Source: Thermococcus gorgonarius
Lineage (GTDB): Archaea; Methanobacteriota_B; Thermococci; Thermococcales; Thermococcaceae
Direction: 5' to 3'
DNA: 64,000 nucleotides
Assembly (NCBI RefSeq): GCF_002214385.1
Contig: NZ_CP014855.1
Coordinates: forward strand, 124,001-188,000
Shown here: in pieces, positions 30,571 through 34,685 of the stretch
Layout: each line of letters opens with the position of its first letter
How positions within the stretch are numbered: the first letter of the stretch is position 1
Notes under the pieces: model-generated
What the model saw: only the letters and a program-made list of their open reading frames with translations
Database searches by the model: none
Told to the model about the DNA's origin: nothing
Program-made: the position numbers and the translations under genes

Positions 30571-30969
30571 TCACTCCCTCTGGCAGAGTTCGAGGAGAAC
30601 ACCTGTTACCGCCTTCGGGTGCACAAAGGCTATCTTTGCCCCGCCAGCGCCTATCCTCGGCTTCTCGTCTATCAGGCGGTAACCCTTCTCCTTCAGCTCT
30701 TTGAGGTGCTCTTCGATGTTGTCAACGCCGAGGGCTATGTGGTGTATCCCCTCACCGCGCTTCGCTATGAACTTCGCTATCGGTGAGTCCTCTGCCGTTG
30801 GCTCCAGAAGCTCTATCCTGCTCTCTCCGATGTGGATTATTGCGGTTCTAACCTTCTGGTCCGGAACCTCTTCAATATCATCAACCTTGAGGCCGAGGCC
30901 TTCCCATACCTTTATGGCCTCTTCAAGGTTCTTAACGGCTATACCGACGTGGTCTATCTTCTTGAACAT
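30571..30969 (-). CDS. mce: Methylmalonyl-CoA epimerase
   Basis: 132 aa from the ATG at 30969 ([20 protein letters not shown]) after GGTGATGGT; a longer frame starts inside MeaB. It is a vicinal-oxygen-chelate enzyme that interconverts (R)- and (S)-methylmalonyl-CoA. Metal ligands are expected at DHVGIAV (His), IELLEP (Glu), HHIALGV (His) and GVLLEL (Glu), all present. It is directly downstream of MeaB and the cobalamin-binding mutase subunit. Confidence 0.95.
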
Positions 30970-30973
30970 ACCA

Positions 30974-31951
30974 TCACCTCCAGAGATCCTCTTTAAGTTT
31001 CTCCATGACGATTTGAGAGGCCGAATATGGGTCGAGCTTCCTCTCCACGACCTCGTCAATGAGCTCCTTGGCCTCTCCTTCCGCGAGCCTCTCCTCGACC
31101 TTTCTCGCTATTGAGGAAGCTATTATCGTCTTCACTTCCTCCCTGGCGCGGAAGGCCCTGCGCTCCCTTAACCTTCCGCTCGACTCCATGTATTCCCTGT
31201 GCTTCTTTATGGCCTCCCAGAGGGGCCTGACCCCCCTAAGGGTAAATGCCGTCGTTTCGACTATCGGCGGCTCCCAGCCCAGTTCCTTCCACTTGTCCTT
31301 TTCGAACTCAAGGGCCATCTTGAGCTCAAGGTAGACCATCTCAACGCCTTCCCTGTCGGCCTTGTTGATGGTGAATATGTCGGCAACTTCCATGAGGCCG
31401 GCCTTTATGGCCTGAACCTCGTCGCCAAGTCCGGGAACGGTTACGAGAACAACCGTATCGGCCGTTTTAACAATGTCCACCTCTATCTGGCCGACTCCAA
31501 CGGTTTCAACGAATATCAGGTCGTAGCCAGCGGCGTCGAGAACCTTTATGGCGTCGTTAGTTGCCTTTGCCAGACCCCCGAGGGCGCCGCGCGTTGCCAT
31601 GCTCCTTATGAATACCCCCCGGTCGGTTGAGTGCCTCTGCATCCTCAGCCTGTCGCCCAGTAAAGCCCCTCCGGTGAAAGGTGAGGTGGGGTCAACGGCT
31701 ATGACGCCGACCTTATGCCCATCATCCCTCGCGAGCTTTATGAGCTTGTCGAGGAGGGTTGACTTTCCAGAGCCGGGGGGACCAGTTATTCCAACGACGT
31801 AGGCCTTTCCGGTGTAGGAGTATATCTTTTTCACTATCTCTCTGGCCTTCTCCTCGTCGTTCTCGACGAGCGTTATTAGCCTCGCTATTGCCTTCTTGTC
31901 GCCTTTGAGTGCGAGTTCGATTAAGCCGTTGAGCCCTTCGGTCATAGGCAT
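30974..31951 (-). CDS. meaB: MeaB/ArgK-type GTPase, methylmalonyl-CoA mutase chaperone
   Basis: 325 aa. G1 is [12 protein letters not shown] near residue 54, with [27 protein letters not shown] (Walker B/G3) and NKADREG (NKxD, G4). The protein protects and reloads the B12 cofactor of methylmalonyl-CoA mutase. A TATA element at 31973-31985 (minus strand) is 25 bases before the GTGATG, so a leaderless start at 31951 or GTG 31954 is likely. It ends four bases before the epimerase. Confidence 0.93.
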
Positions 31952-31972
31952 CACTGGAGAAATTATCCAAGG

Positions 31973-31985
31973 AGAATATAAAGTT
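31973..31985 (-). promoter_or_regulatory. TATA promoter for meaB, overlaps upstream gene end
   Basis: Minus strand AACTTTATATTCT overlaps the stop of the mutase subunit and puts transcription start at about 31954, at the MeaB start codon. Confidence 0.5.
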
Positions 31986-32412
31986 AAGCCCTGAACCTTT
32001 TGAGGTTCTCGACGGCTTTATCAACGGCCTCTATTATGGTTTTCAGAGGTGTTCCGGGGCCGAAGACCTCGAAGACTCCCATCTTTTTGAGCTCCTCGGC
32101 GTCGTCGGGCGGGATTATTCCGCCGGCAAAGACGGCAACGTCCTCTCCTGGCTTCAGACCCCTCTCCTCCAAGAGCCTGAGTATCTTCGGGATGAGAACC
32201 ATGTGTGCCCCAGAAAGTATGCTTATTCCAAGAACTGCGGCGTCTTCCTGGATAACCGTCTCGACTATCTGCTCCGGCGTCTGCCTTATTCCGGTGTAGA
32301 TAACCTCATAGCCTGCCTCCTTGAGGGCCCTCGCAACGACCTTCGCTCCCCTGTCGTGGCCGTCGAGACCGGGCTTCGCTACGACAACGCGGACTTTTGA
32401 GCGTTCCACCAT
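31984..32412 (-). CDS. mcmA2: Methylmalonyl-CoA mutase, cobalamin-binding subunit
   Basis: 142 aa from the ATG at 32412 (MVERSKVRVVVAKPGLDGHD) after GGTGGTG. The B12-binding DGHDRG (DxHxxG) is near residue 18, with SILSGAH and AGGIIPPDD completing the Rossmann-like B12 domain. In Thermococcales the large catalytic subunit is a separate gene; it is not in this window. The module epimerase-MeaB-this subunit interconverts methylmalonyl-CoA and succinyl-CoA. Confidence 0.94.
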   Translation of the reverse strand: MVERSKVRVVVAKPGLDGHDRGAKVVARALKEAGYEVIYTGIRQTPEQIVETVIQEDAAVLGISILSGAHMVLIPKILRLLEERGLKPGEDVAVFAGGIIPPDDAEELKKMGVFEVFGPGTPLKTIIEAVDKAVENLKRFRA

Positions 32413-32441
32413 GAGCACCACCACCCTTAGTTGTCTCCGCT

Positions 32442-32544: not shown

Positions 32545-33198
32545 ATGAGGTTCCCCCATGATACCCATACTCACACTGTTTACTCCGATGGAAGTGGTTC
32601 TGTAGTTGATAACATAGCGGCTGCTGAAGAAAAGGGCCTGAAACTAGTTGCCATAACGGATCACGTCCACTACCTTGAACCAAAAAACCTAAACAGCTAC
32701 ATCTCCGAGATAAAACGCTGGGCTGGGGAGAGCGAAGTTTTTGTTCTGGCTGGTGTGGAGGCAAACATAATGCCCGGAGGAAGTGATGTCCCGGATTGGA
32801 TGGCGAAGAAGCTTGATTTTGTTATAGCCAGCGTCCACGAGTGGGTCGAGAGGCCTGAAGAGTACTTAGAGCTGGTCAAATCAGCACTTCTCGATGATAA
32901 CGTTGATGTGATAGGTCACTTTGGAGCCAGTTTTCCATATATCGGCTTTCCCGGGGCGGAAGAGCTTGAGGAAATCCTGGAACTCGCCGAGGAGAGGGGG
33001 AAAGCTTTTGAGATAAGCTCTAGATACAACGTTCCCGACGTCGATTTTGTGAGGAAATGTATAAAGCGCGGAATAAAGTTGACCTTTGCGAGCGACGCCC
33101 ATTCCCCGAGAAGTGTCGGGAACGTTGGATGGAGCGAGAGCGTGTTTTTAAAGGCCGGCGGAAAGAAGGAGGATCTTCTGTTTGAGGAGTTTCTTTGA
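32545..33198 (+). CDS. PHP-domain phosphoesterase
   Basis: 217 aa from the ATG at 32545 (MRFPHDTHTHTVYSDGSGSV) after TCTGGTG; an in-frame GTG at 32536 lies in that site. The PHP metal-binding motifs are present: HDTHTH at residues 5-10, ITDHVHY near 40, GVEANIM, HFGASFP and SDAHS near the end. The fold hydrolyses phosphate esters (histidinol phosphatase, PolX-type or related); the substrate is not clear. Its stop codon lies inside the first, degenerate CRISPR repeat. Confidence 0.9.
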   Translation: MRFPHDTHTHTVYSDGSGSVVDNIAAAEEKGLKLVAITDHVHYLEPKNLNSYISEIKRWAGESEVFVLAGVEANIMPGGSDVPDWMAKKLDFVIASVHEWVERPEEYLELVKSALLDDNVDVIGHFGASFPYIGFPGAEELEEILELAEERGKAFEISSRYNVPDVDFVRKCIKRGIKLTFASDAHSPRSVGNVGWSESVFLKAGGKKEDLLFEEFL

Positions 33199-33558
33199 CT
33201 TCTCCTAAAGTCTTATTGCAACAAGCGATGATGGCCTTGATCGCGGCGGCGATCCTCATGTTTCAATTCTCCTAAAGTCTTATTGCAACCTTTCTCATCT
33301 ACAACCAAACGAACAACATCACCGTCGTTTCAATTCTCCTAAAGTCTTATTGCAACTTGCCGTCCACGAAGACTTTGGCATTGACTGTTAGGGTTTCAAT
33401 TCTCCTAAAGTCTTATTGCAACTACTTCAACAGCACGACGGGCTACCCGAGGCTCACTAGGTTTCAATTCTCCTAAAGTCTTATTGCAACCGTTACCGTC
33501 CACAAGCACCTTTGCGTTCACAGTCAAGGTTTCAATTCTCCTAAAGTCTTATTGCAAC
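33193..33558 (-). CRISPR. CRISPR array, 6 repeats and 5 spacers, no cas genes nearby
   Basis: Thirty-base repeat beginning GTTTCAATTC and ending TTATTGCAAC on the plus strand. Copies: 33193-33222 (degenerate, three changes near its left end), 33260-33289, 33327-33356, 33393-33422, 33461-33490, 33529-33558. Spacers are 36-38 bases. On the minus strand the repeat starts GTTGCAATAAGAC and ends ATTGAAAC, matching the Thermococcales crRNA tag. The degenerate copy is therefore the distal end, and the leader lies to the right. A minus-strand TATA at 33606-33622 fits. Spacers 33357-33392 and 33491-33528 encode the same peptide (LTVNAKV-F/L-VDG). Confidence 0.97.
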
Positions 33559-34016
33559 AGGGCGGCTTTTTCCTTCGTTCGTCCAACAAGAGAATAAGAA
33601 CCTCCAGATTTTATAAGCTTTTCCACGAAGGGGTCTTGAAAACACCTCAAAAAGCCCCTGTTATCTTTTATCGGGAACTGGAAATTTGACAAAGGAGACG
33701 TTTTCTAGCCTGTTTTCTCAAATGAACATCTTTGTTCACAAGATTTCCCTGGTGCTTAAAAGGGTTGAAAACGACTAAAATCCGTTTTAAATCAGTAGAT
33801 ACGAAAACAAACGGGTTTCCACTGGAAGAACGTATATTTCCGCCTCTCTCCAACCACCGTTTAAAACTTCGAAAAAATTTCGTTACAGTTTACATCGAAC
33901 CATGTAACTCACCGATATATAATAACTAGAGATTACTAAAGATTTCCAGAAAGCCTGGAGTCGTCCAAATCGCAGTAGAACCAACCAGAAGGGACAAAAT
34001 CTCGATAAAAGGAACT
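33559..34016 (-). other. CRISPR leader and gene-free tract
   Basis: About 458 bases, A/T-rich, with no credible gene on either strand; the small frames here lack ribosome-binding sites. Being next to the intact repeats and opposite the degenerate one, it is the leader. The promoter-proximal part has the TATA at 33606-33622. No cas genes are seen in the window, so the array must depend on Cas proteins encoded elsewhere. Confidence 0.7.
33606..33622 (-). promoter_or_regulatory. TATA promoter in CRISPR leader
   Basis: Minus strand AAAAGCTTATAAAATCT; the predicted transcript start near 33589 is about 30 bases before the first intact repeat (33558). Confidence 0.55.
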
Positions 34017-34625: not shown

Positions 34626-34685
34626 GAGGGCGATGACGACAATTTCGCTAGCTGAATGGTGATGACTACCCTCGCAGCCGAGCCT
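34626..34685 (+). ncRNA. Candidate C/D box guide sRNA
   Basis: Box order and spacing fit an archaeal C/D sRNA: C box GCGATGA (34630-34636), 15-base guide, D' box CTGA (34652-34655), four-base spacer ATGG, C' box TGATGA (34660-34665), 12-base guide, D box CCGA (34678-34681, off the CTGA consensus). The guide before D' (CGACAATTTCGCTAG) is complementary to the nearly universal 23S rRNA stretch UAGCGAAAU of helix 71. That would place the methylation on C of UAGC (E. coli C1934). It overlaps the end of the convergent gene at 34684. Confidence 0.5.

What the first reader, a model, noticed from the sequence alone, without database searches (positions are those of the whole stretch)
33357..33528. 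Two CRISPR spacers target diverged copies of the same coding segment
Spacer 33357-33392 read on the minus strand encodes LTVNAKVFVDG; spacer 33491-33528 encodes LTVNAKVLVDGN. In that frame about 11 of 35 bases differ, and nearly all differences fall at synonymous positions; only one codon (F to L) changes the peptide. Chance cannot easily explain this. It means the array was loaded twice from the same conserved gene of two related mobile elements, or from two paralogues. The peptide may identify the virus or plasmid protein being targeted.
Basis: seen in the sequence. Interest (0 to 1): 0.8.

Follow-up and report, generated by a model that had tools for sequence, protein, structure and literature searches.

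The report
Two spacers from one conserved gene
A small CRISPR immune-memory array in a heat-loving archaeon stores two memories of the same protein-coding spot, taken from two distantly related copies of a gene that very likely belongs to an invader absent from the databases searched, so the pair preserves a piece of an unknown protein.

Summary
Spacers 33357-33392 and 33491-33528 match at 25 of 36 bases in perfect register. In the frame LTVNAKV(F/L)VDG, 10 of 11 residues are identical and 9 of 11 differences are at third positions. The pair ranks (tied) first of about 121,000 spacer pairs by peptide similarity. Apart from exact duplicates, it is the only related pair among 9,715 within-array pairs.

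Refinements: leader and promoter lie to the right, so 33491-33528 is the newest spacer and 33357-33392 the third. Both start at the same homologous base, suggesting one shared PAM. Third positions are saturated, so the sources are distant homologues or paralogues, not a virus and its recent escape mutant. In this frame the crRNAs have mRNA sense, so they could target DNA but not the mRNA.

The target was not found in 115 Thermococcota genomes, IMG/VR, GTDB contigs, phages or plasmids. The window's genome has no Cas1, PF01905 Cas7 or PF03787 RAMP match, only a stand-alone Cas6, so the array looks orphaned. A PEGA-like target is a weak lead.

Verdict: a real, clean example of a known kind of event, with the invader unidentified.

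The parts
33193..33558 (-). CRISPR array: five identical 30-nt repeats (33260, 33327, 33393, 33461, 33529) plus one degenerate repeat at 33193-33222 (leader-distal end); five spacers of 36-38 nt
33491..33528 (-). Spacer 1 (leader-proximal, newest), 38 nt, encodes LTVNAKVLVDGN in crRNA sense
33357..33392 (-). Spacer 3, 36 nt, encodes LTVNAKVFVDG in crRNA sense; same start base as spacer 1
33423..33460 (-). Spacer 2, unrelated; open frame YFNSTTGYPRLT on the opposite strand
33290..33326 (-). Spacer 4, unrelated; open frame FLIYNQTNNITV on the opposite strand
33223..33259 (-). Spacer 5 (oldest), unrelated; open frames MRIAAAIKAIIA (crRNA sense) and AMMALIAAAIL (opposite strand)
33559..34016 (-). 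Leader region, 39% G+C; last bases before the array (GCCGCCCT in crRNA sense) shared with leaders of relatives
33609..33625 (-). BRE/TATA promoter motif TGGAAAAGCTTATAAAA, at the same place in leaders of relatives

Best explanation
The array took up the same PAM-adjacent site of one conserved gene twice, from two distantly related invading elements. The older spacer (33357) came from element A; later, after one unrelated spacer, the newest (33491) came from element B, whose gene encodes the same peptide with almost every third base changed. The crRNA made from the first spacer would mismatch element B at 11 of 36 positions, including positions 2, 4 and 7 next to the PAM, so it would be expected to give little or no protection and a second acquisition would pay. 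Shown here: homology of the two source segments, common start base, order of insertion (from the leader side), coding-sense orientation in the favoured frame. Inferred: that the sources are two elements rather than two paralogues in one element; the NGG-type PAM (which would make the preceding codon GGC, Gly); loss of protection by the older spacer. The array now sits in a genome where no adaptation or effector genes were found, so it is probably a relic of past immunity.
For: 25/36 identity in register with 10 of 11 residues identical. Best, tied, of about 121,000 spacer pairs by peptide similarity and the only non-duplicate related pair among 9,715 within-array pairs. Identical start base of both spacers. 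9 of 11 third positions differ, i.e. saturation. Leader and promoter on the right, conserved with relatives. The other three spacers are unrelated to the pair. Precedent: viral populations carrying the same peptide at about 70% nucleotide identity to a spacer (PMC2612747). Many undescribed Thermococcales viruses exist (PMC12934983).
Against: No protospacer, gene or element was found in any collection searched. The PAM is therefore unread. Hitting exactly the same site twice in a five-spacer array is unlikely if uptake is uniform along an element, which leaves room for repeated domains in one element or a hotspot. The genome lacks the cas genes tested, so uptake must predate their loss or the array was gained with its spacers.
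Confidence: 0.6

Rival explanations
1. Both spacers come from one element that carries two paralogous copies, or repeated domains, of the segment, for example a multi-domain surface, lectin or PEGA-like protein.
For: Exact same start base is easier to hit if the site exists in several copies per element. Lectin proteins with repeated domains are core genes of Thermococcales spindle viruses (PMC12934983). The only Thermococcaceae near-matches to the peptide are PEGA domains, a domain that occurs in tandem repeats.
Against: 10 of 11 identical residues with saturated third positions needs old paralogues under strong constraint. The PEGA match is only to the A-K-V-x-V-D-G core; the peptides score 2 bits against a mean of 36 for true PEGA windows.
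Confidence: 0.27
2. The source gene is read on the other strand (LPST[K/S]T[L/F]A[L/F]TV[R/K]); the pair is still homologous coding DNA but the targeted protein is a different one and the crRNAs would be antisense to the mRNA.
For: That frame shares the wobble positions with the favoured one and keeps 8 of 12 residues.
Against: It needs four replacements instead of one; the two-fold codons Asn and Lys of the favoured frame both change synonymously. A degenerate search for this peptide in IMG/VR found nothing, as did the favoured frame.
Confidence: 0.08
3. One spacer is a duplicate of the other that diverged inside the array.
For: Exact spacer duplications occur in arrays of relatives (five cases).
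Against: Spacers are not translated, so mutation in the array would not fall at synonymous positions; the duplicates seen elsewhere are identical over their shared length; the two spacers differ in length (36 and 38).
Confidence: 0.01
4. Chance resemblance of two unrelated spacers.
For: Short sequences; one of 2.87 million random window pairs also reached 25 of 36.
Against: 0 of 200,000 random substitution placements keep the peptide; maximum peptide identity of about 3 million in-frame coding pairs was 8 of 11.
Confidence: 0.01
5. Anti-cas orphan array: the spacers target cas genes of incoming CRISPR systems, as in the E. coli orphan I-F arrays.
For: No Cas1, PF01905 Cas7 or PF03787 RAMP match in the genome; orphan anti-cas arrays are known in E. 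coli (PMC8616872).
Against: None of the five spacer peptides tested matches six-frame translations of 40 cas1-containing regions of relatives beyond background. No whole-genome match to the shared peptide at 2-3 mismatches in 115 genomes, 101 of which carry a cas6-family gene, other than the two spacers and unrelated genes.
Confidence: 0.01

Closest known systems
Silent variation of viral protospacers in Yellowstone Synechococcus mats (Heidelberg et al. 2009, PMC2612747)
   Same: The same peptide encoded by DNA about 70% identical to a spacer, with changes mostly silent or conservative
   Different: There the variation was seen among viral reads compared with one spacer; here two spacers of one array record two such variants, with the same start base, and the viruses are unknown
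Spacers of different Thermococcales hosts against overlapping homologous segments (L064/L071 and L068/L069, this work)
   Same: Peptide-level similarity between diverged spacers
   Different: Those pairs lie in different hosts, on opposite strands and offset; here same array, same strand, same start base
Primed or interference-driven adaptation in Pyrococcus furiosus (Garrett et al. 2020, cited in PMC7694759)
   Same: A partly matching old spacer can stimulate uptake of new spacers from the same or a related element
   Different: Priming as described enriches for uptake from the targeted element in general, not specifically the identical site; not testable here because the target and the cas genes are missing
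Orphan CRISPR arrays (reviewed in PMC8616872)
   Same: Array kept while adaptation and effector genes are not found in the genome
   Different: Leader and promoter look intact, and a stand-alone Cas6 homologue remains elsewhere in the genome

Membership tests
Genuine Thermococcales CRISPR array | 30-nt repeat of the Thermococcales family, regular 36-38-nt spacers | tested here: met
   median Thermococcales spacer length is 37 (PMC12934983)
Genuine Thermococcales CRISPR array | Leader with promoter next to the array | tested here: met
   BRE/TATA and GCCGCCCT leader end as in relatives
Genuine Thermococcales CRISPR array | Adaptation and effector genes in the genome | tested here: not met
   No Cas1, PF01905 Cas7 or PF03787 RAMP match; a stand-alone Cas6 only. 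Cas2, Cas3, Cas4, Cas5 and Cas10 not searched. This lowers 'active system', not 'is an array'.
Pair of spacers against homologous protospacers | In-register similarity with mainly synonymous differences | tested here: met
Pair of spacers against homologous protospacers | Protospacers found in homologous genes of mobile elements | tested here: inconclusive
   No protospacer found in any collection
Pair of spacers against homologous protospacers | PAM next to both protospacers | not testable with these tools
   No protospacer, so no flank to read; common start base is indirect support
Target is a PEGA-domain protein (PF08308) | Peptide fits the PEGA profile | tested here: inconclusive
   Top 0.014% of background 13-mers but far below true PEGA windows; only the core matches
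Anti-cas orphan array | Spacers match cas genes of relatives | tested here: not met
   (40 cas1-containing regions of relatives)

The most novel reading that the evidence does not exclude
Spacer uptake hit exactly the same base of the same codon-conserved site in two elements whose synonymous sites are saturated, because a conserved PAM-bearing motif (for example a GGC-Leu step in a hallmark protein) acts as a recurrent acquisition or selection hotspot across a whole virus family. The peptide GLTVNAKV(F/L)VDGN would then be a usable probe for a Thermococcales virus family not yet in the collections searched.
Probability: 0.2. Interest if true: 0.5.

Novelty: new member of a known kind. Interest (0 to 1): 0.35.

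Why it matters
Two spacers that are synonymous copies recover a reading frame, a peptide and its tolerance to change from an invader that may never have been sequenced. Such pairs can be mined systematically from arrays and used as protein-level probes, where nucleotide spacer matching leaves about two thirds of Thermococcales spacers without a target (33% matched; PMC12934983). The pair also suggests a host storing a second spacer against an already represented site after the older one was too divergent to work well.

Tried and rejected
Degenerate-codon searches for LTVNAKV(F/L)VDG and shorter cores: own genome (only the two spacers), 115 Thermococcota genomes with 2-3 mismatches, IMG/VR (all 8 scans used, including the other spacers and the opposite-strand frame), GTDB contigs (6 unrelated hits, two of them sharing the VNAKVLVDGAQ motif in what looks like a cysteine desulfurase), phages and plasmids by blastn (chance-level matches only). 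All five spacers against 115 genomes by DNA: only weak matches of 18-25 bases (E 0.002-0.07); those translated fall in ordinary-looking chromosomal frames. Plasmid pTBMP1 (first 50 kb) scanned for the peptide: nothing convincing. PAV1 and a T. nautili plasmid record were not in the collections under the accessions tried. P. furiosus PAM papers were not held, so the NGG PAM rests on memory. A first version of the ORF script was wrong and was redone; one pairwise script timed out and was redone. Duplicated-then-mutated spacer and anti-cas array were considered and rejected.

Full report
What is there. The window holds one CRISPR array at 33193-33558: five identical 30-nt repeats and a degenerate sixth at 33193. 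It is the only array of this repeat in the 1.67-Mb, single-contig genome. The repeat belongs to the family used by relatives. The array is read on the minus strand: an A+T-rich leader (33559-34016) lies to its right, with a BRE/TATA motif TGGAAAAGCTTATAAAA about 59 nt upstream of the first repeat and the leader end GCCGCCCT. Similar elements stand at the same places in the leaders of most relatives compared. The degenerate repeat at the other end overlaps the stop of a PHP-domain gene. From the leader, the spacers are 33491-33528 (newest), 33423-33460, 33357-33392, 33290-33326 and 33223-33259.

The observation. In crRNA sense the third and first spacers are C CTA ACA GTC AAT GCC AAA GTC TTC GTG GAC GGC AA and C TTG ACT GTG AAC GCA AAG GTG CTT GTG GAC GGT AAC G. 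They align without gaps from the very first base with 25 of 36 identities. Of 11 differences nine are third-codon positions, one is the synonymous first base of Leu, and one changes Phe to Leu. With 8.7 of 33 sites synonymous, ten or more of 11 random differences being synonymous has a probability of about 1.3e-5, on top of the improbability of 25/36 identity itself (1 of 2.87 million random window pairs reached 25). Random placement of 11 substitutions kept 10 of 11 residues in none of 200,000 trials. The opposite-strand frame shares the wobble positions and keeps 8 of 12 residues. The sense frame is therefore favoured by one versus four replacements, but the wobble pattern alone does not fix the strand.

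How unusual it is. I extracted 493 spacers from 19 arrays (this one and arrays near cas1 in relatives). Apart from five exact duplicates, the pair is the only related pair among 9,715 within-array pairs, and it shares the first rank of all roughly 121,000 pairs by peptide similarity. Two cross-genome cases (L064/L071 and L068/L069) show spacers of different hosts against overlapping homologous segments, but on opposite strands and offset. So convergence on one gene occurs in these archaea, while same array, same strand and same start base is rare in this sample.

What it means. Spacers are not translated, so synonymous divergence must have arisen in the source genes before uptake. Nine of 11 third positions differ, which is saturation: the two sources are distant relatives or old paralogues under strong protein constraint, not a virus and its recent escape mutant. 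The common start base suggests that the same PAM position was used. If the PAM is NGG, as I recall for Pyrococcus furiosus (papers not held), the preceding codon is GGC and the peptide becomes GLTVNAKV(F/L)VDGN; this is a prediction. In this frame the crRNAs have the sense of the mRNA, so they could guide DNA but not RNA targeting. The older spacer mismatches the newer target at PAM-proximal positions 2, 4 and 7 and eight others, so by general knowledge of type I seeds it should have protected poorly; this is inferred.

The state of the system. No Cas1, PF01905 Cas7 or PF03787 RAMP match was found in the genome, whereas 45 of 61 genomes of the genus set have Cas1. The only cas gene found is a stand-alone Cas6 homologue at genome position 882,802-883,557, closest to the solved structures 3ufc and 3qjj (PH0350), among unrelated genes. 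No cas genes lie near the array. The array therefore looks orphaned: leader and promoter intact, machinery apparently lost. Cas2, Cas3, Cas4, Cas5 and Cas10 were not searched individually.

The target. No protospacer or gene with the peptide was found in the genome, in 115 Thermococcota genomes, in IMG/VR, in GTDB contigs, or in the phage and plasmid collections. This is not surprising: a 2026 preprint reports that only 33% of Thermococcales spacers find a protospacer even in vent metagenomes and describes 620 viral genomes, most of them previously undescribed (PMC12934983). The only Thermococcaceae near-matches to the peptide pattern, SNVKAKVFVDGK and YPENAKVSVDGK, lie in PEGA domains. A PEGA profile scores both spacer peptides in the top 0.014% of 13-mers but far below true members, and the comparison was made after seeing those hits. 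I hold PEGA as a weak lead.

Verdict. It is a clean instance of a known kind of event: synonymous divergence of protospacers between related invaders is documented (PMC2612747). Two features are worth keeping: the identical start base in one array, and the fact that the pair gives a protein-level probe for the unknown element.

Noticed in passing
genome G000 C1:882802-883557 (L028:9803-10558, -): A stand-alone Cas6 homologue, closest to PDB 3ufc and 3qjj (PH0350), sits among non-cas genes and is the only cas-type gene found in this genome.
   Followed up: partly
whole genome G000: No Cas1, PF01905 Cas7, PF03787 RAMP or PEGA match in a complete 1.67-Mb genome whose relatives mostly carry them, while an array with an intact leader remains.
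   Followed up: partly
L064 spacer 4 / L071 spacer 8; L068 spacer 28 / L069 spacer 28: Spacers of different Thermococcales genomes encode overlapping near-identical peptides (for example FLVIGSIAMLAM / LVIGSIAMLAM) on opposite strands, so they target homologous genes.
   Followed up: partly
L060, L061, L062 (arrays of relatives): Five exact spacer duplications within arrays, some differing only in the length of the 3' end.
   Followed up: no
34629-34683 (+): C/D box RNA sR39 lies between the Maf gene and the next gene, a few hundred bases beyond the array leader.
   Followed up: no
30571-32424 (-): Cluster of a glyoxalase-family protein, the MeaB GTPase and a B12-binding protein, probably methylmalonyl-CoA epimerase and mutase parts, next to the array.
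   Followed up: no
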